From Deltaproteobacteria bacterium (GTDB taxonomy: Bacteria > Bdellovibrionota_F > JAHFAK01), in the NCBI GenBank assembly GCA_023250585.1, contig JAHFAK010000081.1, positions 1-11,036 on the forward strand: a stretch of DNA of 11,036 bases, read 5' to 3'. The notes under the pieces were generated by a model. It was not told the origin of the DNA. It was given only the letters and a program-made list of their open reading frames with translations, and did no database searches. This document shows positions 1 through 11,034 of this stretch, piece by piece (the stretch's first letter is position 1; every line of letters begins with the position of its first letter). Made by a program: the position numbers and the translations under genes.

Positions 1-911
1 TCTTGTTCTTTGGCTCCTGGATTAATTGATGCATTACTATCATCACAATCGACATTGGCAGTAAATCCATCGTTATCGCTATCGACATCTTTACAATTCA
101 ATATTACTCCATTGCAGTTATAATCTTTTGGACTATCGCATTTCTCAGGAGCGCCTGGATATGTTTTTGCATCAATATCATCGCAATCAGCTTGATTCTC
201 AGTAAATCCATCCTTATCGTCATCGACATCTTTACAATCAAGGTCTTTTCCACTGCAGTCTTGATCTATGCCATCACTGCAAACTTCTTGAGCGCCAGGA
301 TAAATCTTCGCATCCGCATCATTACAATCCACATTTGCAGTTGAGCCATCGTTATCATTATCGACATCTTTGCAATTCAGTATTGTTCCATCACAGTTAT
401 AATCTTTTGGACTATCGCATTTTTCAGTGGCGCCAGGATATGTTGCCGCATCTGCATCATCGCAATCAGCTTGGTTTTCAGTAAATCCATCCTTATCGTC
501 ATCGACGTCTTTGCAATCAAGGTCTTTTCCATTACAGTCTTGATCTATGCCATCACTGCAAATTTCTTGAGCGCCAGGATAAATCTTCGCATCCGTATCA
601 TTGCAATCACTCTGATTTTCTGTATAACCATCGCTATCGTTATCTACATCATTACAACTGATATCTTTTTCATTACAATCTTGATCAATACCGTCATCGC
701 ATACTTCGGGAGCGCCGGGATAAATACTTTTATCAGCGTCATTGCAATCCCCTTGGGTTTCATTAAAACCATCACCATCATTATCTGCTTTAAGTTCTGC
801 AAGTGTTGTTGATCGAAATGCGCTATCTCCAAAACATCCTGCTACACTAAATAATATGAGCACTAGCCCATGTATTGAGTAAAAACGTATGTTGTTTTTT
901 GTACTCTTCAT
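1..911 (-). CDS. MopE-like repeat lipoprotein, 5' part (runs off left edge)
   Basis: Reading from 911 down to 1 gives 303 codons without a stop; the 3' end lies outside the window. The ATG at 911-909 follows AGGAGG (921-916) by 4 nt. Residues 1-26 are a lipoprotein signal: KSTKNN with Lys/Arg, a hydrophobic stretch, and the lipobox V-A-G-C with Cys26 as the lipidation site, so the protein is likely membrane-tethered and exported. From about residue 43 come five full units and one partial unit of 46-48 residues. Each has a D-x-D-x-DG start, DC(N/D)D, YPGA, two further Cys and a closing KDVD. This matches the Asp/Cys pattern of the MopE-type putative metal-binding repeat (PF11617-like). Units come in two kinds: one with DGIDQDCNG, the other with SPKDYNCDG. 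Metal binding is inferred from the acidic DxDxDG loops. The C-terminal domain, and hence the real job, is not visible. It is transcribed away from the gene-free stretch at 912-1637 and has no operon partner in view. Confidence 0.9.
   Translation of the reverse strand, partial: MKSTKNNIRFYSIHGLVLILFSVAGCFGDSAFRSTTLAELKADNDGDGFNETQGDCNDADKSIYPGAPEVCDDGIDQDCNEKDISCNDVDNDSDGYTENQSDCNDTDAKIYPGAQEICSDGIDQDCNGKDLDCKDVDDDKDGFTENQADCDDADAATYPGATEKCDSPKDYNCDGTILNCKDVDNDNDGSTANVDCNDADAKIYPGAQEVCSDGIDQDCSGKDLDCKDVDDDKDGFTENQADCDDIDAKTYPGAPEKCDSPKDYNCNGVILNCKDVDSDNDGFTANVDCDDSNASINPGAKEQ
52..609 (-). repeat. 279-bp higher-order tandem repeat inside the MopE-like gene
   Basis: Bases 52-330 and 331-609 are two copies of a 279-bp (93-codon) block made of one 47-residue and one 46-residue MopE unit. 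They stay in register over their whole length. The best conserved part (about 181-330 against 460-609) shows about nine differences, all transitions. Beyond 609 the register breaks because the next unit is one codon longer. This indicates duplication of a two-unit block rather than of single units. Confidence 0.85.
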
Positions 912-1223
912 AATTCCTCCTAAAATTATAGACGTGTTCCACGCCATACTCCCTAATAAAGCAAATTGTATGCCATATTTATAATTCTTTATTAATAAAA
1001 AAAATTAATAATATCAATAGGCTTATAGCTAAAAGGCTTATGCGGAATTTCTTAATGTAAGAAAGAAAGAGATCATTAAGAAAGAAATTATGCAAAATTT
1101 ACATATCAGGCAATAGTAAATAAAAATCTAAAAATTTACCCTATTCACCACTAAATGCACATCGATTACTGTACCCTCCAAACTCAAATAGTGAATCAGA
1201 TGAGTGAGAAGAATTATTGTAAT
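912..1223. other. AT-rich gene-free stretch with a 10-bp inverted repeat
   Basis: No credible coding region lies here. It is the 5' leader and upstream region of the minus-strand lipoprotein gene. TTTCTTAATG (1048-1057) and CATTAAGAAA (1074-1083) form a perfect 10-bp inverted repeat around a 16-nt A/G-rich loop, with no T-run on either side, so it is not a standard terminator. I could not assign a convincing promoter to the lipoprotein gene; a weak minus-strand candidate (TTGCCT / CATAAT, near 1115-1090) has a short 15-nt spacer. Confidence 0.5.
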
Positions 1224-1464
1224 AGCTCAGAAGGTGTGAAAGAATCAGATTTCGAGGGTGGTCCCTCACCTGTCATTGCGAGGAGGACACGTTTTCTTGT
1301 CCGACGAAGCAATCTCAAGCAGGTTCGGGATAAACTCCGCAATCGTGCATATGTAAGAAGAGATTGCTTCAAACCCTTCAGGTTTTCGCAATGACAGTCG
1401 ATTTGGACATTTCAGTTTCCTATCGCTCTTTCTCAGAAAATGGAGCCCTCTCTTGATTTTTTCA
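1224..1464 (+). repeat. Dispersed palindromic repeat, copy 1 (241 bp)
   Basis: This stretch recurs in the same orientation at 10752-11034 with about 12 substitutions over 241 bp (about 95% identity) and one 42-bp gap. Its core, 1271-1396, is a nested imperfect palindrome. The outer arms are TGTCATTGCGA (1271-1281) and TCGCAATGACA (1386-1396). The inner arms are GAAGCAATCTC (1306-1316) and GAGATTGCTTC (1360-1370). A small hairpin, GGACA/TGTCC, lies at 1285-1302. The TCATTGCGA and GAAGCAATCT words are typical of short non-coding palindromic repeats scattered through many bacterial genomes. It encodes nothing credible. Confidence 0.88.
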
Positions 1465-1637: not shown

Positions 1638-2807
1638 ATGTATAAAAGATTATGTAATCCATTAAAATCACATAGTTTTTTTCTCTTTGGGGCACGAGGA
1701 ACCGGTAAAACTACCCTGATGAGAAGCCTTTTAGAAAAAGAAAATGTTTTTTGGATTGATCTCTTGGATAAGAATGAAGAGGATCGTTACGCAAGAAACC
1801 CAAGTCTTCTTTATAGAGAAGTACAGGCAAAATCGGGAACAATTAATTGGGTGGTGATCGATGAAGTTCAAAAAGTTCCACCACTTTTAGATACCGTCCA
1901 TCGAATTATTGAAACTCATGAATTTAAGGCACCACAATTTGCTCTTACTGGTTCAAGCGCTCGGAAATTAAAACATGGCGGCGCTAATTTACTCGCAGGT
2001 CGAGCTTTTGTAAATAGCTTACATCCACTTACCTTATTAGAATATGGAAATGATGTTGATTTAGACTTTGTCTTAAATTGGGGATCATTACCAAAAATTT
2101 TTTCCTTCACCAATGATAATGAACGACAAGAATTTTTGCGTGCCTACGGATTAACGTATTTAAAAGAAGAAGTATGGGCGGAACATTTGGTACAAGAACT
2201 TGAGCCTTTTCGAAAATTTTTGGAAGTATCTGCACAAACAAACAGCGAAATCATAAACTATTCCAAAATTGCTCGAGATGTAAATGTTCATGAAAACACC
2301 GTTAAAAAATATTTCCAAATTTTAGAAGACACATGGTTGGGATTTTTGCTTGAGCCCTATTCGAAATCAGTCCGTAAAAGACTCAGAAAAAATTCTAAAT
2401 TTTATTTTTTTGATCTAGGTGTTAAACGGGCTTTAGAAAGAACGCTGGGACAAAGCATTATAGAAAACACCTATGCTTATGGCAAGGCCTTTGAACATTT
2501 TATTATCCTCGAATGCTTCAGATTAAATGAATATTTCAAAAAAGATTTTTCATTTTCTTATTTACGTACGAAAGATGATGCTGAAATCGATCTTATCGTT
2601 GATCGCCCCGGTCAACTTACAATTATAGCAGAAATCAAATCTTCTGCTATAGCACAGGAAAGCGATATAAGGACATTAAAAGCATTTAATACGGATATTC
2701 CAAACTCGAAAGCTATTCTTATTTCACGAGATCCCCATGAGCAAATTATTGATGGAATACATTTTTTGCATTGGAAAAAAGCGATTAATGAAATTATGCT
2801 GATTTGA
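1638..2807 (+). CDS. AAA-family ATPase with C-terminal DUF4143 domain
   Basis: This 389-residue protein has the usual size and layout of the COG1373 type (AAA_14 followed by DUF4143). Residues 18-25 are the Walker A motif GARGTGKT, 72-76 the Walker B motif VVIDE, and 104-111 TGSSARKL, the sensor-like stretch typical of the family. A helical region around 200-240 may be a winged-helix-like segment. The C-terminal domain carries D318 (in DDAEID, 313-318) and E332-I-K334, the layout of a PD-(D/E)xK nuclease-like fold that is common in DUF4143 proteins but often of unproven activity. The family is widespread and mobile in bacteria and archaea, with no settled role; defence, partner-protein or DNA-related functions have been suggested. 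The start at 1638 has only a weak GAGTGAG ahead of it. It has its own promoter, appears monocistronic, and its last 14 bp overlap the end of the convergent dehydrogenase gene. Confidence 0.88.
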   Translation: MYKRLCNPLKSHSFFLFGARGTGKTTLMRSLLEKENVFWIDLLDKNEEDRYARNPSLLYREVQAKSGTINWVVIDEVQKVPPLLDTVHRIIETHEFKAPQFALTGSSARKLKHGGANLLAGRAFVNSLHPLTLLEYGNDVDLDFVLNWGSLPKIFSFTNDNERQEFLRAYGLTYLKEEVWAEHLVQELEPFRKFLEVSAQTNSEIINYSKIARDVNVHENTVKKYFQILEDTWLGFLLEPYSKSVRKRLRKNSKFYFFDLGVKRALERTLGQSIIENTYAYGKAFEHFIILECFRLNEYFKKDFSFSYLRTKDDAEIDLIVDRPGQLTIIAEIKSSAIAQESDIRTLKAFNTDIPNSKAILISRDPHEQIIDGIHFLHWKKAINEIMLI

Positions 2808-4182
2808 AAACTAATAATTTATCTTCCATCATTTCTGTCATGGTATAAGGAATTCCGCCAACCCCTATTCCCGAATGATTTTTACCACCAAAAGGCATCC
2901 AATCAACACGAAATGCAGTATGGTCATTAATCATGACGGCTTTGGCATTGAGTCTTTTTGCAGTATCAAAAGCAACATCAATATTTTTTGTACAAATCGC
3001 TGCTTGAAAAGCATATGGTACGTTGTTTGCCCGAGCGATTGCTTCACTTCTATCAGAATACGTATAAAGACACACAATAGGGCCAAACACTTCTTCACAT
3101 GATACACGAACATTCGCCGGCGGATTTAAAATAACGGTAGGTTCAAAACAGGTATTTGATAAACGCTTTCCTCCGCAGAGTATTTCTGCTCCACTTTCTT
3201 TTGCCTCTTTTACCCATGCTTCCATACGAGTAACTTCTTTCGGATCAATGAGTGGGCCTACATCAGTATTTTTATCTAAAGGATCGCCTGTTCGTAAAGC
3301 TTTAACTCGTTCTATAAATTGTTTTGAAAAATTTTTCATACTACTCTCATGAATATAAATTCTCTGGACTTTAACACATACCTGTCCGGCATGATACATT
3401 CCTCCTTTAACAAGAGCAGGAATGAGGCTTACAAGATCTGCATCAGGCTCGACAATAACTGGAGCTGCTCCGCCATGTTCTAAAGCACAGTGAGTTCCAG
3501 GAGCTAATTTTGATCGTAAATACCATCCAACTTTTGCAGAGCCAATAAATGAAAGATAGCGGACGCGGCTATCAGTTGCTAACTTTTCTGCCAATTCATT
3601 AGTGCACACAAAAGTCTGACACCAATTTTTCGGAAGTCCCGCTTCATAAAAAAGATTAACTAAATTAAAACATGACAGAGGAGTTTTTGTTGCTGGTTTA
3701 ATAATTACCGGACAGCCTGTAGCTATGGCTGGAATGGTCTGATGAATAGCCAAATTTAATGGATGATTAAAAGCTGAAAGCGAAACCACAACACCTATTG
3801 GCTCTTTAATGGTAAATGCCAATCGATGCTCAGAAGATCGAGTAAGCTCCATGGGAATTTCTTCTCCCTTCATCTGACCTAAATATTCGATCCCAAGCTT
3901 AACCCCATTAATCGCTCGTTCGACTTCAATTAACGAATCAGTATAGGGTTTACCTCCCTCCTCAGCTGCCATTTTGGTCAGCTCAGGAATTTTATTTTTC
4001 ATGAGAGTTATAAGGTTTTCCAATATCTCAATTCTCTTATACTTAGGAAGCCAATTCGATCGATCTACAAAAGTCTCATGCGCTACTCGCAGCGCTTTTT
4101 CTATTTCTCTTTCTCCCACAAGCGGCACTTCATTAATGAAATGGTTATCATAGGGGGAATAGACTTTAATTGTTTCACTCAT
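2794..4182 (-). CDS. NAD(P)-dependent aldehyde dehydrogenase
   Basis: This 462-residue member of the ALDH superfamily oxidises an aldehyde to an acid, or possibly an acyl product, with NAD(P). The key residues are in place: Asn139 (in FNHPLN), the general base Glu235 (in EHGG, where most relatives have ELGG), the nucleophile Cys269 (in GQVCVK, 34 residues after the Glu as usual), and Glu364 (in EEVFGP). FIGSAKVG is the Rossmann-type nucleotide-binding turn, and PFGGKNHSGIG is near the C terminus. The substrate cannot be read from sequence; by feel it is nearest to the lactaldehyde / phosphonoacetaldehyde / glyceraldehyde-3-phosphate group of ALDHs. The start is set by AGGAGG (4192-4187), 4 nt before the ATG. 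It is the last gene of the mgtC-like / acetolactate-synthase-like / ALDH series, separated from the preceding gene by a MITE-like element. Its 3' end overlaps the convergent ATPase gene by 14 bp. Confidence 0.93.
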   Translation of the reverse strand: MSETIKVYSPYDNHFINEVPLVGEREIEKALRVAHETFVDRSNWLPKYKRIEILENLITLMKNKIPELTKMAAEEGGKPYTDSLIEVERAINGVKLGIEYLGQMKGEEIPMELTRSSEHRLAFTIKEPIGVVVSLSAFNHPLNLAIHQTIPAIATGCPVIIKPATKTPLSCFNLVNLFYEAGLPKNWCQTFVCTNELAEKLATDSRVRYLSFIGSAKVGWYLRSKLAPGTHCALEHGGAAPVIVEPDADLVSLIPALVKGGMYHAGQVCVKVQRIYIHESSMKNFSKQFIERVKALRTGDPLDKNTDVGPLIDPKEVTRMEAWVKEAKESGAEILCGGKRLSNTCFEPTVILNPPANVRVSCEEVFGPIVCLYTYSDRSEAIARANNVPYAFQAAICTKNIDVAFDTAKRLNAKAVMINDHTAFRVDWMPFGGKNHSGIGVGGIPYTMTEMMEDKLLVFKSA

Positions 4183-4195
4183 AGATCCTCCTGAC

Positions 4196-4429
4196 TATAC
4201 ACGACGCCATAACTTCGCATACCATCGTTACTCCTCGTCTCGTCACTGCGTCCTACTACGCTCCTACGGAGCTTCGAAGGACAAGTTTTGTTTAAAGTAC
4301 TTGCTCTCACCAAAGCTTGTCCTGCGTAGTTCCGTAGGAACGAAGCAGGATCACTGCGGCGTACAAGTTCGTACGCCTCGCTCCTCGACTTCGTCGTGCC
4401 TTGGTCTGCTCGTTCTTGCGTCGTGTATA
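4196..4429. mobile_element. MITE-like palindromic element with 12-bp terminal inverted repeats
   Basis: Perfect 12-bp inverted termini, TATACACGACGC (4196-4207) and GCGTCGTGTATA (4418-4429), bound a non-coding 234-bp unit. It is richer in G+C than its surroundings (32 of 60 bases in 4201-4260). Inside, 4252-4290 and 4311-4349 form a 39-bp imperfect inverted repeat around a 20-nt spacer, and each arm is itself a hairpin (GCTCC-tac-GGAGC on the left, GTTCC-gta-GGAAC on the right). A further perfect hairpin, GGCGTAC/GTACGCC, lies at 4358-4377. Both ends carry TATA, so a TA target duplication as in IS630/Tc1-type MITEs is possible; no longer target duplication is visible. The element fills almost all the space between the acetolactate-synthase-like gene and the dehydrogenase, ending 3 bp short of the latter's Shine-Dalgarno. 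Confidence 0.72.
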
Positions 4430-4443
4430 TCTTCCACATAATT

Positions 4444-6090
4444 TCATAGTAAAAAGTGACATGTCTTTTCTTTAAGTTCTTCATAGAGGACTCGATTATT
4501 TTCTGAATAATCGATAGCAACATCAATGACATGAACACCTTTAGTCTTTAAAGAAGTCTCAAGACATTTTTCGAATTCTGCACAGCTTTTTATTGAGTAT
4601 CCCTTTGCTCCATAACTTTCAGCAAATTTTACAAAATCAGGATTATTAAATTCGAGTCCAAAATTTTTGAACCCCATACTTTCTTGCTTCCATTTAATCA
4701 TTCCGTACGCATGGTCATTAAGAATAATAAGAACCAGATCGAGATTCAATCGGATAGCGGTTTCTAGTTCATGGGAACTCATCATAAAACCACCATCTCC
4801 GCAAACAGCTAGTACTTTTTTTGTAGGAAAAAGCAATTTGGTTGCAATAGCTTGTGGAAGCCCCGCTCCCATACTTGCCAATGCATTATCGAGTAATAAC
4901 GTATTGGATTCATAACACAGATAATTGCGAGCAAACCAAATTTTATACATGCCATTATCAAGACTTACAATGCCATCTGCAGGCATACTCTCACGAACAA
5001 CTCGTACAATGCGCTGAGGAATCAACGGGAAACGTGTATCAGTTGATTTATTCATTATATATTGATCAAGTTCTTCTTTTGTCTTTAAGAAAAAAGTCTT
5101 ATTCCAATGGGATTGAGGCTTGATTCGCTTCGTTAATTGATCAACCGATAGTGAAATATCTCCAATGACATCAAGCTGTGGAAAATAGACTTCATCAATT
5201 TCGGCAGGAGAAAAATTAACATGAATAACTTTTTTATGATCTCTTTTCATAATAAACGGAGGTTTCTCTATAGTGTCATGCCCCACGTTAATAATCAGAT
5301 CAGAACGATCTATTGCACAGTGAATATAGTCATCTTGCGAAAGCGCTGCAGTTCCAATAAATAATGGATGACGTTCATCAACAACTCCCTTGCCCATTTG
5401 CGTATTACAAAAAGGAATACCCGATTTTTCTATAAATGCATGTAACGATACACATGTCCGTTTCCTATTTGCTCCAGCTCCAATGAGAAGAAGAGGCAAA
5501 GATGCCTGATGGATCATGGTAATAGCTTGATTAATCGCTTCTTCATCGGCAACAGGTCGACGCGAGACTTGTACATCAAAAAGATGCTCTTCAACTTCTT
5601 CAGATGCAATATCTTCAGGTAATTCCAGATGAGCTGTACCCGGACGTTCCTCGCAAGCAATTCTAAAAGCTTCACGTACACGAGAGGGAATATTATTTCC
5701 ATTGACGATTTGTTTAGTATATTTTGTTATTGGGCGCATCATATCGATTACATCAAGAATCTGAAAGCGGCCTTGTTTAGCGACAGTAATAGGCTTTTGT
5801 CCCGTAATCATTACCATTGGCATCGCACCTAAATTAGCATATGCAGCAGCAGTGACTAAATTCGTTGCCCCCGGTCCTAGGGTTGATAAACAAACACCAG
5901 GGACACCCGTAAGCCGACCAATTGTCGCAGCCATAAATCCTGCAGCTTGTTCATGCCGCGTAACAATAAGCCTAATTTTTGATTTTCTGAGCGCTTCAAG
6001 AAAATCAAGATTCTCTTCACCCGGAATACCAAAAATATATTCAATACCTTCATTTTCTAAAGCTTTAACAAAAAGCTCAGCAGCTTTCAT
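4444..6090 (-). CDS. Acetolactate synthase-like ThDP-dependent enzyme (catabolic, single-subunit type)
   Basis: This 548-residue protein spans the three domains of ThDP decarboxylase/carboligase enzymes (N-terminal PYR, central TPP_enzyme_M, C-terminal PP). It would join two pyruvates, or a related 2-oxoacid pair, to give acetolactate plus CO2. Glu47 (in TRHEQAA) is the cofactor-activating Glu, which argues against glyoxylate carboligase. GPGATN (72-77) and RPITKY (119-124) are typical of the acetolactate synthase group. GDG (431-433) with Asn458 is the Mg-ThDP motif. No small regulatory subunit gene follows, which points to a catabolic or stand-alone enzyme rather than the branched-chain biosynthetic pair. 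An upstream in-frame ATG at 6105 exists, but AAGGAG (6101-6096) lies 5 nt before the ATG at 6090, and MKAAELF matches the family N terminus, so 6090 is preferred. It sits 52 bp after the MgtC-family gene. Related ThDP enzymes such as sulfoacetaldehyde acetyltransferase cannot be fully excluded. Confidence 0.9.
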   Translation of the reverse strand: MKAAELFVKALENEGIEYIFGIPGEENLDFLEALRKSKIRLIVTRHEQAAGFMAATIGRLTGVPGVCLSTLGPGATNLVTAAAYANLGAMPMVMITGQKPITVAKQGRFQILDVIDMMRPITKYTKQIVNGNNIPSRVREAFRIACEERPGTAHLELPEDIASEEVEEHLFDVQVSRRPVADEEAINQAITMIHQASLPLLLIGAGANRKRTCVSLHAFIEKSGIPFCNTQMGKGVVDERHPLFIGTAALSQDDYIHCAIDRSDLIINVGHDTIEKPPFIMKRDHKKVIHVNFSPAEIDEVYFPQLDVIGDISLSVDQLTKRIKPQSHWNKTFFLKTKEELDQYIMNKSTDTRFPLIPQRIVRVVRESMPADGIVSLDNGMYKIWFARNYLCYESNTLLLDNALASMGAGLPQAIATKLLFPTKKVLAVCGDGGFMMSSHELETAIRLNLDLVLIILNDHAYGMIKWKQESMGFKNFGLEFNNPDFVKFAESYGAKGYSIKSCAEFEKCLETSLKTKGVHVIDVAIDYSENNRVLYEELKEKTCHFLL

Positions 6091-6142
6091 ACATACTCCT
6101 TGCATTCACCTTACGCTTCATTATTGATTAAAGAAACCTGTT

Positions 6143-6613
6143 TCAATTACCATTGCCTGGTGTTTCTTTTGTTGATTTAATGATCTTAAGCTTTTCCAAT
6201 TTTTCAACACCCAAGAGTACCACAACAGAAATAAGAGAAATAACAATAGCCACATCATATTGCCTAAGTCCTATTGCGGATCCAATAGCAGCAAGCATCC
6301 AAACTATTGCAGCCGATGTTGCCCCAATAACTCTTCCTTGGTTTTGCATCATCAGACCTGCACCAATAAAACCGATCCCCGTAATAACCTGTCCTAAAAC
6401 ACGCGTACTATCTTTATTACCATCCAGATTCTCACCGAGATAGATATAAATGAGTGTTCCTATGATAATTAAAAAGCAGGTACGAATGCCGATAGTTTTT
6501 CCTCGTCGATGGCGTTCAATACCAATAATAGAAGCACATATAATAGCGACAAAAATCTGTATCCAAAAATCGCCATCTAGTATATGAGGGAAATACGTGT
6601 ATAAAAAATCCAT
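6143..6613 (-). CDS. MgtC/SapB-family inner-membrane protein
   Basis: This 156-residue, very hydrophobic protein has about four membrane segments (roughly 16-32, 46-60, 76-90 and 98-135, the last probably two). The family signature is clear: GIERHRRGK (31-39), GIRT (42-45), DSTR with Arg71, the GIGFIGAG stretch (79-86) and the GATSAAIVWMLAAIG stretch. The length matches the SapB-like core; the C-terminal ACT-like cytosolic domain found in Salmonella MgtC is absent. MgtC proteins are linked to growth at low Mg2+ and to modulation of the F-type ATP synthase, but most homologues outside pathogens are uncharacterised, so no ion transport is claimed. AGAGAGGA ends 5 nt before the ATG at 6613. It is the first gene of the minus-strand series and is divergent from the large surface-protein gene. 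Confidence 0.93.
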   Translation of the reverse strand: MDFLYTYFPHILDGDFWIQIFVAIICASIIGIERHRRGKTIGIRTCFLIIIGTLIYIYLGENLDGNKDSTRVLGQVITGIGFIGAGLMMQNQGRVIGATSAAIVWMLAAIGSAIGLRQYDVAIVISLISVVVLLGVEKLEKLKIIKSTKETPGNGN

Positions 6614-6838: not shown

Positions 6839-9800
6839 ATGCTCAAGCTTTTCAAACACTATGAACTCATAGCGAGAAAATACTATCCCCTGGGTATAGT
6901 ACTCATTATCGTCAGTCTTCTCATCATTATCTTTTCCTTTGGATTACCCTGTGGAGAGGATTCAGAAAATGTACAATTAATCAAACAACGGGGTATGTTT
7001 GAAACATGTAGAGCTCCTGCCGGTGATGGTGATGTGGATAAAGATGGAATTCCCAATGCCTGCGATCCTGATGATGACAATGATGGAATAAGAGATAGCA
7101 AAGATAACTGCTTTCCCATAGCTAACCCAGACCAAAAAGATAGCGATGGGGATGGACTTGGTGATGTCTGCGATGATAATTTTGATCGTGATGGAGTCCC
7201 TGATTCAGTTGATAACTGCCCTAAAGTCAAGAATCATAACCAAGGTGATTTTGATAAAGATGGTAGAGGTGATGCTTGTGATGATGATATCGATGGAGAT
7301 GGAATCCCAAACACGAAAGATCTCTGTAATTTCGATAAACGAAATACCTGTGCACAAGCTATTCTCAGGAATAAAAGAGACTCAAAAGCAGCAAAAGTTA
7401 AACTACCGGCAAAAAAAGATACTGATGGTGATGGAAAACCCGATAGTAACGATAATTGCCCTACCGTAGCAAACAAAGATCAATCCGATATCGATGCAGA
7501 TGGAATCGGTGATGCCTGTGATCCTTGTCCCAATGACCCTCAAAATGATGAAGATGGTGATAATGTCTGCGGAAATATAGACAACTGCAAAACCACACCC
7601 AATCCCTATCAAGAAGACTTTGATGGCGACAACATAGGAGATGCCTGTGATTCTGATGTGGATGGAGATGGACGGCCAAACGATACCGATAACTGCATGT
7701 ATGTGTCTAATCCAAGTCAAGCAGATAAAGATGGAGATGGCATAGGAGATGCTTGTGATTTTGTTGATGATACGGATAGTGATGAAGATGGACTACCGGA
7801 TGAAAAGGATAATTGCCCGGATATGTATAATCTTGCCCAGTCAGATCTTGATAACGATGGCATTGGAGATGCCTGCGATAATTGTCCCCAAACAGCTAAC
7901 TCAGGACAAGAAGACAAAGACGGAGACACAATCGGTGATGCTTGTGATACTACAGGTACTTCAAATCAGGGACAGATGTGTCAAGATTTTTGCAATGATT
8001 TATGGACAATCGTCAAAGAAGAGTGTGGAGAACCTCCCAATGAATATATGTATACTGTTTTTATGAATACATGTACTGATAATTGTGAATATTACTATCC
8101 TGATGAATGCCCCGATGATCAAGGCACCGTAGATGCAGTGGGTAAACAACTTGATGACTGCCTTACACAGCAAAAAGATTCCCTCAATTGTGAGGAAATC
8201 TATGATCCTTCAAACAATGTAAACTTAAGTGCCTGTTCGGATCAGTTTCAAGAAATTGTCACGATTTGTTCCGCTGCGACTAATGAAGAAAAGATGTGTG
8301 AAGATTTTTGTGAGGATCTCTGGACAAAAACAGTAGCTACCTGTGAGACTGAACCCAATGACTCCGTAAAAGATGCCTATATCAAAAATTGCACCAACTA
8401 TTGTGAGGACTTGTATCCTGAGGATTGTCCTACTGATGATGCAACGACAAGTCAGATAGAAACACAGCTTAACGAATGCGTTACTAAACTTACCAGCAAC
8501 GTAACCTGTGATCCCAGCAACCCTCCTACAACTGTTGCGTGGGATGTTTGTGAGGAGGACTTCAATACCATTGTTGCTATTTGTACGGAGAGCCAGGAGG
8601 AAGACAATACAAATATAGATGACAGCATAGAACTTATTGAAGCATATGAATTATATTCGATAGATTTTTGGATAGATGAAAATAATCAATTGCAATATAA
8701 GAATTTTTTGAAACACGTTCATTCATATACAGTTTATGCTAATCGTTATAAACAAGCATTAACGGAGACGCATTATCTTCTTAAAGGCTATGACCTTTTT
8801 GGTAATCTCATGTATGAATCGTATCTCAACTTTTCTACTCCAATTATTGAACCAGCTGAATATCATGAATGTACTTCTGAAACCGATTGTCCGGAAACAG
8901 CGATTCCTGTAGATGATACGTTATATGGAGGGGCACTTATACCATCAACGATGGGTACACAAGTACTCAAGAAAATTATTATTGAAACAGATGCCGGAGT
9001 AAAAGAATTCGAACTTGATATAACTCAGGCTATCTTGGTTACACAAAAGGATGATGAGCCAAATGAGAATAGTATGGTTAGTACTGTATTAAAAATGCAA
9101 TTCGAAAAAATTGCAGAGGCGGAAGAATTAAAGAATTGTTGTCAAATAATGACAGAGGAATGTGTCGAAAATAATTGGGGAATTGAAATAAGAAATAATC
9201 TTCCTCTTAACGCAGTTTATTCCAAATCTATATATTGTATGATAGATAATGCATATCTCAAAATGACTGATTTAACAAAGACAGACTTAACAAAAGAAAA
9301 GTTACATAAGTATGTGGAGGGGTTTGTTTTTGAAGATATGACAGAAACAACAAAGGATAAGACAGCAGCATATTACCATGGTTACAGAAGAACTATACAT
9401 ATAATTTTTAATAAAAGCGGCAATACTTACATACCTCTCATTGATACTCCAGGAGTTATCCATGAATTTGGACATGGTTGGGAAGAAACTTCATTAGAAT
9501 ATAATCCTACAACTAAATTTGGATATACGTTCTATGAAAACGCCTGGGAGAAAACTCATAAAGCGCATGGACCAGGTCTTTCAATACTTGATAGTTATGC
9601 TGCCTGTAGTTATGCAGCTTTAGGAATTGCTCATGAAGATGCTGCAGAATGGTTTAAGGCATACTTTACCGAGAGTGACCCGATACAAAACTCCTTTAAT
9701 CAAGGCTTGCTTAATCAATCTGAGAGAGCATATTATTGCAATCTTGATATGAGTACAAAGAAATATAAAGGTTGGACAGCAATGCCAGCAGCTGGATGTC

Positions 9801-10624
9801 GTAACTATTCTGGATTAGAAAAGCTAACATTTATGAAAGATACTCTTGTTATTAAAAAGAATATATATCAAAATATTGCTAAAGCTTTAAGCTGGAGTTC
9901 CTGTAAGGAGCAGGCAACGCCAGCAGCCCACAATGCAAACCAAATAACTACAGAAACCATTGCAAGCCAGCGCTGCCCTTTACTGGGAGAATGGAGCGTG
10001 ATTCTTGGTACTATACCAGACCCAAAAGTAATCACAGGATCTTCAACCCCAGAAGCAATAGCCCAATGTCAAAGTACCTGTAATCAAAAACAAGGAAAGA
10101 TTGGAGATACCATTAAGATAACATTTGGAGATTACAGTTTGCCCGATGATTTTGTAGGTAATATGGCATGCACACAGCTTGATGTAAAACGAGATGAGCT
10201 CAGTACCCCTGAGTGGTGTCAGCCTCAATGTAACAACCCACATGCTTTATTTACCATTGATAATCAAAATATGAGAGGTATTCCAGTGGTTCCAGGTGAT
10301 GACGAAAAAAAATGCGAATATTTTAAACAATGGGAAATAACGTGCCCACGACCTCCAGGTACGACAATCGCAGATCCACAGTATGATGCTGTCATTCAGT
10401 TAGATTCATCAGATGAGCCAGATGCATTCTTTCATGTCATGAATGCTGATTATAAATTCGCAAAGGCGGTCGCTCACGTAGGTTGGGACAATAACCAACA
10501 AGGTAATGCATACTGTGAATGTAACTGGAATTATCCCATCACCGTTACCCGAAAAGAACCGAAGAGTGGACAAGAAAATACCTACTACTACCCGACTGAT
10601 CAATGTAATTGGTCGAATAAATAA
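6839..10624 (+). CDS. Large membrane-anchored TSP3-repeat protein with twin 10-Cys domains and a probable zinc metallopeptidase domain
   Basis: This is a 1261-residue exported protein. Residues 1-17 are basic or polar and about 18-36 are strongly hydrophobic, forming a signal anchor or signal peptide; the Cys38 after G-L-P does not make a good lipobox. Residues 62-370 hold about eight thrombospondin type 3 repeats (DNCP...DxDGIGDACD), a calcium-binding rod, broken by a Lys/Arg-rich linker at 175-193. Residues 381-477 and 487-582 are two copies of a domain with ten cysteines in nearly identical spacing; I do not recognise it. About 600-800 is a mostly beta-looking region without a known signature. 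HEFGH (875-879) is an HExxH zinc site, and E933 or E937 in HEDAAEWF, 54-58 residues further on, could be the third ligand, as in gluzincin peptidases. The Cys-containing tail (about 1060-1261) is unassigned. Calcium binding and export are well supported; protease activity is inferred from the motif. It has its own promoter, a strong Shine-Dalgarno and no same-strand partner. Confidence 0.92.
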   Translation: MLKLFKHYELIARKYYPLGIVLIIVSLLIIIFSFGLPCGEDSENVQLIKQRGMFETCRAPAGDGDVDKDGIPNACDPDDDNDGIRDSKDNCFPIANPDQKDSDGDGLGDVCDDNFDRDGVPDSVDNCPKVKNHNQGDFDKDGRGDACDDDIDGDGIPNTKDLCNFDKRNTCAQAILRNKRDSKAAKVKLPAKKDTDGDGKPDSNDNCPTVANKDQSDIDADGIGDACDPCPNDPQNDEDGDNVCGNIDNCKTTPNPYQEDFDGDNIGDACDSDVDGDGRPNDTDNCMYVSNPSQADKDGDGIGDACDFVDDTDSDEDGLPDEKDNCPDMYNLAQSDLDNDGIGDACDNCPQTANSGQEDKDGDTIGDACDTTGTSNQGQMCQDFCNDLWTIVKEECGEPPNEYMYTVFMNTCTDNCEYYYPDECPDDQGTVDAVGKQLDDCLTQQKDSLNCEEIYDPSNNVNLSACSDQFQEIVTICSAATNEEKMCEDFCEDLWTKTVATCETEPNDSVKDAYIKNCTNYCEDLYPEDCPTDDATTSQIETQLNECVTKLTSNVTCDPSNPPTTVAWDVCEEDFNTIVAICTESQEEDNTNIDDSIELIEAYELYSIDFWIDENNQLQYKNFLKHVHSYTVYANRYKQALTETHYLLKGYDLFGNLMYESYLNFSTPIIEPAEYHECTSETDCPETAIPVDDTLYGGALIPSTMGTQVLKKIIIETDAGVKEFELDITQAILVTQKDDEPNENSMVSTVLKMQFEKIAEAEELKNCCQIMTEECVENNWGIEIRNNLPLNAVYSKSIYCMIDNAYLKMTDLTKTDLTKEKLHKYVEGFVFEDMTETTKDKTAAYYHGYRRTIHIIFNKSGNTYIPLIDTPGVIHEFGHGWEETSLEYNPTTKFGYTFYENAWEKTHKAHGPGLSILDSYAACSYAALGIAHEDAAEWFKAYFTESDPIQNSFNQGLLNQSERAYYCNLDMSTKKYKGWTAMPAAGCRNYSGLEKLTFMKDTLVIKKNIYQNIAKALSWSSCKEQATPAAHNANQITTETIASQRCPLLGEWSVILGTIPDPKVITGSSTPEAIAQCQSTCNQKQGKIGDTIKITFGDYSLPDDFVGNMACTQLDVKRDELSTPEWCQPQCNNPHALFTIDNQNMRGIPVVPGDDEKKCEYFKQWEITCPRPPGTTIADPQYDAVIQLDSSDEPDAFFHVMNADYKFAKAVAHVGWDNNQQGNAYCECNWNYPITVTRKEPKSGQENTYYYPTDQCNWSNK
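7979..8584 (+). other. Tandem pair of an unrecognised 10-cysteine domain (part of the large protein)
   Basis: Copy 1 is residues 381-477 (7979-8269) and copy 2 is 487-582 (8297-8584). Cysteine spacing in copy 1 is 3-10-15-3-7-16-9-14-10. Copy 2 is the same except for 13 in place of 14. Shared blocks are C-x-DFC-x-DLW, YP(D/E)(D/E)CP, QL(D/N)(D/E)C and F-x-x-IV-x-IC. Ten even-numbered cysteines in an exported protein suggest five disulfides per copy. The duplication is internal to the open frame, with a 9-residue linker. Confidence 0.85.
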
Positions 10625-10751: not shown

Positions 10752-11034
10752 AGCTCAGAAGGTGTGAAAAAATCATATTTCTCACTTCGTTCGCAATGAC
10801 AGAAGACCGCATGTTGTCATTTCGAGGGTGGTCTCTTACCTGTCATTGCGAGGAGGGCACGTTTTCTTGCCCGACGAAGCAATCTCAAGCAGGTTCGGAA
10901 TAAACTCCGCAATCCTGCATATGTAAGAAGAGATTGCTTCAAACCCTTCAGGTTTTCGCAATGACAGTCGAATGGGACATTTCAGTTTCCTATCGCTCTT
11001 TTTCAGAAAATGGAGCTCTCTCTTGATTTTTTCA
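10752..11034 (+). repeat. Dispersed palindromic repeat, copy 2 (283 bp, reaches near the right edge)
   Basis: This is the same element and orientation as 1224-1464, with the core palindrome at 10841-10966 (126 bp in both copies). It carries 42 extra bases (10781-10822) that add another inverted pair, TCGCAATGACA (10791-10801) with TGTCATTTCGA (10815-10825, one mismatch). The core hairpin is GGGCA/TGCCC (10855-10872), where copy 1 has GGACA/TGTCC. Only two bases remain to the right of the shared part, so its true right boundary is not settled. The stretch 10625-11036 holds no gene. Confidence 0.88.

What the first reader, a model, noticed from the sequence alone, without database searches (positions are those of the whole stretch)
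7979..8584. Unrecognised 10-cysteine domain, duplicated in tandem in a surface protein
Two adjacent copies of 97 and 96 residues keep all ten cysteines with the same spacing apart from a single residue, while much of the sequence between them has changed. Strict Cys conservation after duplication implies a disulfide-stabilised fold under selection. I cannot match the pattern to a named family; it may be a new extracellular module, perhaps a binding or spacer domain between the calcium rod and the peptidase.
Basis: partly seen in the sequence, partly recalled or inferred. Interest (0 to 1): 0.62.

Follow-up and report, generated by a model that had tools for sequence, protein, structure and literature searches.

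The report
Orphan ten-cysteine helical domain pair
A predicted surface protein of a poorly sampled bacterium carries two back-to-back copies of a small helical domain, probably stapled by disulfides, that matched no family or solved structure we could search and was found elsewhere only once, in a sister protein of the same genome; it may be a stiff connector between a calcium-binding stalk and a putative protease, but that function is untested.

Summary
Residues 381-582 of ORF 6839-10624 hold two 10-Cys units; all ten cysteines and eight of nine spacings are identical (C8-C9: 14 vs 13 residues), while only 33% of other residues match. The only relative found is a paralogue in the same genome, with one copy that keeps all ten cysteines. 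Pfam, NCBIfam, PHROGs, PDB sequences, plasmids, phages, viral contigs, two pattern scans of ~85,000 genomes and profile searches of several hundred genomes gave no credible relative. AlphaFold2 gives a four-helix bundle (pLDDT 85, pTM 0.77). Cysteines lie on one face of each helix, the genome has a VKOR-DsbA oxidase, and no solved fold stands out. So an unrecognised, probably disulfide-stabilised domain is supported, but it is lineage-restricted, not a shown widespread module. Cysteine pairing and function are unproven. Best guess: rigid connector between the TSP3 rod and a C-terminal region with HExxH. New variant of a known kind; interest moderate to low.

The parts
6839..10624 (+). ORF of 1261 aa that carries the finding: N-terminal hydrophobic segment, TSP3 rod, two 10-Cys domains, C-terminal region with HExxH
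   Evidence: ORF list; TSP_3 Pfam E 4.3e-56
6863..6952 (+). N-terminal hydrophobic segment (about residues 9-38), signal anchor or signal peptide; no clean lipobox (GLPC)
   Evidence: read directly from the sequence; similar in the paralogue
7022..7948 (+). thrombospondin type 3 repeats (predicted calcium-binding rod), ending nine residues before the first 10-Cys unit
   Evidence: PF02412, 9 stretches; extent read from the sequence
7976..8272 (+). 10-Cys domain, copy 1 (residues 380-478)
   Evidence: Cys map; AlphaFold2 four-helix model
8294..8587 (+). 10-Cys domain, copy 2 (residues 486-583); closest relative is the paralogue's single copy (50%)
8621..9094 (+). segment after the 10-Cys pair (starts SIELIEAYELYS; end approximate) that also occurs alone in a small protein with a signal-like N-terminus downstream of the paralogue, so it looks like an independent domain
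9461..9649 (+). putative zinc-peptidase motifs: HEFGH, then after 53 residues EDAAE, invariant in both paralogues; no family match
   Evidence: alignment A2; no Pfam, NCBIfam or PDB match

Best explanation
The two units are copies of an undescribed, lineage-restricted extracellular domain of about 100 residues: a four-helix bundle stapled by (probably five) disulfides, with helices 1 and 2 forming a hairpin in which one CX3C faces another. In this protein the pair sits at the join between a calcium-stiffened TSP3 rod and the C-terminal globular part with an HExxH motif. Most likely it acts as a rigid, protease-resistant connector that sets the distance and orientation of the C-terminal part from the cell surface; copy number (two here, one in the paralogue) would tune that length. 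Shown: the Cys framework, its conservation in three copies, the absence of a family match, a fairly confident predicted helical bundle, the position between rod and C-terminal part, the copy-number difference. Inferred: disulfide pairing, surface location, connector role, peptidase activity of the C-terminal part.
For: All ten Cys kept in three copies while only 28-45% of the other residues match. Predicted four-helix bundle, pLDDT 85, pTM 0.77, from three sequences. Cysteines of each helix lie on one face (0/40/60 degrees in H1, 0/40 in H2, 0/20 in H4), within 20 to 70 degrees of the hydrophobic face. Route to an oxidising compartment: hydrophobic N-terminus, three DsbA-like proteins including a VKOR-DsbA fusion in the genome. 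TSP3 rod directly before; an independently occurring domain directly after. One copy in the paralogue against two here, the single copy being in the position of copy 2, as a length-adjusting connector would allow.
Against: Conserved non-Cys residues (C-x-D-F-C-x-D-L-W, YPxxCP) are more than a pure spacer strictly needs and could mark a binding surface. The domain is very acidic (23 and 21 D/E against 4 K/R), which could mean ion or partner binding. The model rests on three sequences, one of five models was poor (pLDDT 52.5), and pairing was not checked. No experiment exists on any member.
Confidence: 0.5

Rival explanations
1. Binding module: the pair recognises a ligand, a wall or glycan partner, or a substrate (exosite) for the putative peptidase, and the disulfides only hold the binding surface.
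For: Conserved non-Cys motifs C-x-D-F-C-x-D-L-W and YPxxCP across all three copies; conserved aromatic residues; strongly acidic composition; adjacent to a putative catalytic region.
Against: No family or fold link to a known binding domain. Conserved residues may be structural. The copy number is not fixed.
Confidence: 0.3
2. Regulatory or inhibitory module for the putative peptidase, in the manner of a propeptide or a helical-hairpin inhibitor.
For: It lies N-terminal to the putative catalytic part, where propeptides sit; CX3C-CX3C helical hairpins include trypsin inhibitors (alpha-hairpinins, PMC11591084).
Against: An independently occurring domain lies between it and the HExxH region; peptidase activity is unproven; no match to inhibitor families.
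Confidence: 0.1
3. Thiol metal-binding domain in which the cysteines are reduced and hold metal.
For: High Cys content; a gene in the same window (1-912, minus strand) carries MopE-type putative metal-binding repeats.
Against: Extracytoplasmic location is predicted and the genome has a VKOR-DsbA fusion; CX3C spacing and helix-face arrangement fit disulfides; no metal-domain match above cut-off.
Confidence: 0.07

Closest known systems
Alpha-hairpinin CX3C...CX3C helical hairpin (plant peptides)
   Same: Helices 1 and 2 of the model carry one CX3C each (C1-C2, C4-C5), as in the C1X3C2-Xn-C3X3C4 motif that folds as an antiparallel helix pair (PMC11591084).
   Different: The gap between the two CX3C is 26 residues and contains a cysteine (the published 4C motif allows 4-20 non-Cys residues); four helices and ten cysteines rather than two helices and four to six; about 100 residues inside a large protein rather than a short peptide.
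Gaussia luciferase fold (10 Cys, five disulfides, all alpha; PMC7674443)
   Same: Small all-helical protein with ten oxidised cysteines, in which four cysteines of two CX3C motifs (C52, C56, C123, C127) lie close together.
   Different: In the luciferase the ten cysteines are split over two repeats of five (C52, 56, 59, 65, 77; 120, 123, 127, 136, 148); here each repeat has ten, with other spacings. It did not appear in the fold search, which does not exclude a relation.
IZUMO1 N-terminal four-helix region (top VIA-align row)
   Same: Four-helix arrangement; Z 6.3, rmsd 4.0 over 100 residues.
   Different: 11% identity; tied with unrelated and designed bundles, and under the level the tool regards as informative for helical bundles.
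TSP3-repeat surface proteins such as myxobacterial MtsC and TraB
   Same: Same type of predicted calcium-binding repeats (MtsC model 201 bits through the repeats; TraB has TSP3 repeats as a linker, PMC12045341).
   Different: The MtsC score is below its cut-off of 350; its best stretch covers repeats, not the 10-Cys units; no MYXO-CTERM match in this genome.

Membership tests
Any Pfam, NCBIfam or PHROGs family | Match of the 10-Cys stretch above the curated score or at a clearly significant E-value over the domain | tested here: not met
   Best Pfam 16.4 bits (PPR_long, cut-off 27); NCBIfam none; PHROGs best E 0.0024 over only 20-36 residues
Alpha-hairpinin | CX3C-X(4-20, no Cys)-CX3C core motif | tested here: not met
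   Gap of 26 residues that contains C3 in all three copies
Alpha-hairpinin | Two antiparallel helices joined by disulfides between the CX3C motifs | tested here: inconclusive
   Both CX3C lie in consecutive predicted helices 2-20 and 26-43; pairing not checked
Gaussia-type luciferase | Two repeats with five Cys each, in the spacing of GLuc | tested here: not met
   Ten Cys per repeat, spacing 3-10-15-3-7-16-9-(12 to 14)-10
IZUMO-like four-helix bundle | Fold similarity clearly above unrelated bundles | tested here: inconclusive
   Z 6.3, not separated from unrelated and designed bundles at 5.3-5.7
Frizzled CRD and GDNF-receptor ten-Cys domains | Pfam profile match | tested here: not met
   Neither profile is among the Pfam matches up to E 10 for the pair or either copy; a fold relation is not excluded
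Thrombospondin type 3 repeat protein (rod next to the finding) | PF02412 repeats over cut-off | tested here: met
   186.7 bits, nine stretches; cut-off 25
Zinc metallopeptidase (C-terminal part) | HExxH conserved in relatives, with a downstream acidic ligand | tested here: inconclusive
   HEFGH and EDAAE invariant in two paralogues, but no family or PDB match and a failed structure model, pLDDT 28

The most novel reading that the evidence does not exclude
A new fold-level family: a five-disulfide four-helix bundle with its own Cys framework, confined to one thinly sampled bacterial lineage, that positions or targets a likewise undescribed family of surface metallopeptidases.
Probability: 0.25. 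Interest if true: 0.5.

Novelty: new variant of a known kind. Interest (0 to 1): 0.33.

Why it matters
Disulfide-stapled helical modules are a known kind of extracellular building block, but this Cys framework is not in the libraries searched and was found in only two proteins of one genome, whose phylum has two held genomes. If the disulfides hold, it adds a compact, tandem-capable helical scaffold to the list and gives a handle on two orphan surface proteins with a putative new peptidase. It does not by itself open or settle a major question.

Tried and rejected
1) Myxobacterial lead: I recalled (from memory) small myxobacterial lipoproteins with a similar order of ten cysteines. Tested with the three-copy profile on 5 plus 195 genomes of two phyla picked by their MYXO-CTERM proteins and with a bait sequence made up from that memory (no positive control, so its empty answer shows nothing). 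The weak profile matches that I inspected (L016, L018, L019) lie out of frame of the evident genes; most others have stop codons inside. Not supported, not excluded. 3) A stricter pattern in genome contigs gave six hits, none a relative; the Myxococcales one is a Cys-rich protein of another type. 4) Peptide patterns in genome contigs: 60 pattern hits, none confirmed. 5) The structure of the C-terminal part failed (pLDDT 28), so no fold search was made with it. 6) PDB profile hits at E 0.02 to TFIIA cover one helix only: taken as chance. 7) Foldseek: nothing significant in PDB or viral models (best E 1.7 and 0.91). 8) Papers: no description of this domain in the searches made.

Full report
OBSERVATION. 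The ORF at 6839-10624 (+) encodes 1261 residues. It starts with a hydrophobic N-terminal segment, continues with thrombospondin type 3 repeats (PF02412, 186.7 bits, nine stretches), and then has two adjacent units with ten cysteines each. Residues between cysteines are 3-10-15-3-7-16-9-14-10 in copy 1 and 3-10-15-3-7-16-9-13-10 in copy 2. The copies share 38 of 95 aligned residues, 28 of 85 without the cysteines; the alignment score of 212 far exceeds shuffles (maximum 70) and shuffles with fixed cysteines (maximum 109). Three of ten Cys codon pairs differ synonymously.

RELATIVES. The same genome (2.24 Mb in 164 contigs) has one paralogue on contig C22 (L003 3147-6053, minus strand). It has the same layout but fewer TSP3 stretches (five) and a single 10-Cys unit, spacing 3-10-15-3-7-16-9-12-10. 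A profile of the three units finds these three in the genome and nothing else up to E 10. It finds nothing at E 0.01 in the other 385 genomes of a wide sample, and only weak, chance-like matches in the second genome of the phylum and in two phyla picked by MYXO-CTERM proteins. No relative came from viral contigs, plasmids, phages (best E 5), or from two differently designed scans of about 85,000 species genomes. These scans depend on short exact patterns or exact Cys spacing, so distant members may be missed; and records close to the window's own genome may be left out of the collections.

HISTORY. Copy 2 is 50% identical to the paralogue's unit; copy 1 is 40% identical to copy 2 and 35% to the paralogue's unit. 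The C-terminal parts of the two proteins are 46% identical. The paralogue's unit occupies the place of copy 2. So copy 1 is either an old copy lost from the paralogue or a fast-diverged one; it is not a recent duplicate.

DOMAIN BOUNDARIES. Upstream, the TSP3 rod ends about nine residues before the unit. Downstream, the stretch starting SIELIEAYELYS also occurs by itself in a small protein encoded just after the paralogue (L003 2466-2933, minus), behind its own signal-like N-terminus. The 10-Cys units are therefore bounded on both sides by independent modules.

STRUCTURE. AlphaFold2 on the three-sequence alignment predicts helices 2-20, 26-43, 52-72, 75-78 and 88-103 with mean pLDDT 85 and pTM 0.77; four of five models have pLDDT near 80 or above, one does not (52.5). 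In model numbering the cysteines are at 5, 9, 20, 36, 40, 48, 65, 75, 90, 101. In each helix with several cysteines they lie on one face, near the hydrophobic face. The genome encodes a VKOR-DsbA fusion and two further DsbA-like proteins (fusion read from the sequence), so oxidative folding outside the cytoplasm is available.

COMPARISON WITH KNOWN FAMILIES. No credible Pfam, NCBIfam, PHROGs or PDB-sequence match. Foldseek finds nothing significant (PDB best E 1.7, viral best 0.91). VIA-align lists IZUMO1 first at Z 6.3, rmsd 4.0, 100 residues, not separated from designed bundles. The CX3C pairs recall alpha-hairpinins (PMC11591084) and the ten paired cysteines recall Gaussia luciferase (PMC7674443), but the defining Cys motifs of both are not met. 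It may work like a hairpin stapled by CX3C pairs; it is not a member of those families by the criteria tested.

FUNCTION. The C-terminal part has HEFGH and, 53 residues on, EDAAE, invariant in both paralogues, but matches no family and could not be modelled. A zinc peptidase is therefore a reasonable guess, not a finding. The most economical role for the 10-Cys pair is a stiff, stable connector between rod and head, with copy number as a length setting; a binding or exosite role is the main rival. Neither has been tested.

VERDICT. A real, conserved, so far undescribed (in what was searched) Cys-rich helical domain with a very narrow distribution.

Noticed in passing
window 9461-9649: HEFGH plus EDAAE motifs, invariant between two paralogues, in a 670-residue region without any family or PDB-sequence match and without a relative in 385 other genomes: perhaps a new metallopeptidase family.
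   Followed up: partly
L003 2466-2933 (minus strand): Small protein with a signal-like N-terminus just downstream of the paralogue that consists of only the domain following the 10-Cys units (profile positions 1-158).
   Followed up: partly
L003 upstream of 6053 (minus strand): The paralogue's N-terminal hydrophobic segment is in frame, but no ATG, GTG or TTG precedes it; an AGGAGG lies upstream of a possible ATT start. Rare start codon or sequence error.
   Followed up: no
window 1-912 (minus strand): Predicted lipoprotein with MopE-type putative metal-binding repeats (PF11617, E 1.2e-41), cut by the contig end; its DNA holds 279-nt direct repeats.
   Followed up: partly
window 1249-1464 and 10819-11034: Two copies (95% identical, 216 nt) of an interspersed repeat outside the predicted genes; the second lies at the contig end and may explain the assembly break.
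   Followed up: partly
L152: VKOR-DsbA fusion protein of the same genome.
   Followed up: partly
window 1638-6613: Ordinary neighbours: AAA_14/DUF4143 ATPase, aldehyde dehydrogenase, acetolactate synthase large subunit, MgtC-family protein.
   Followed up: yes
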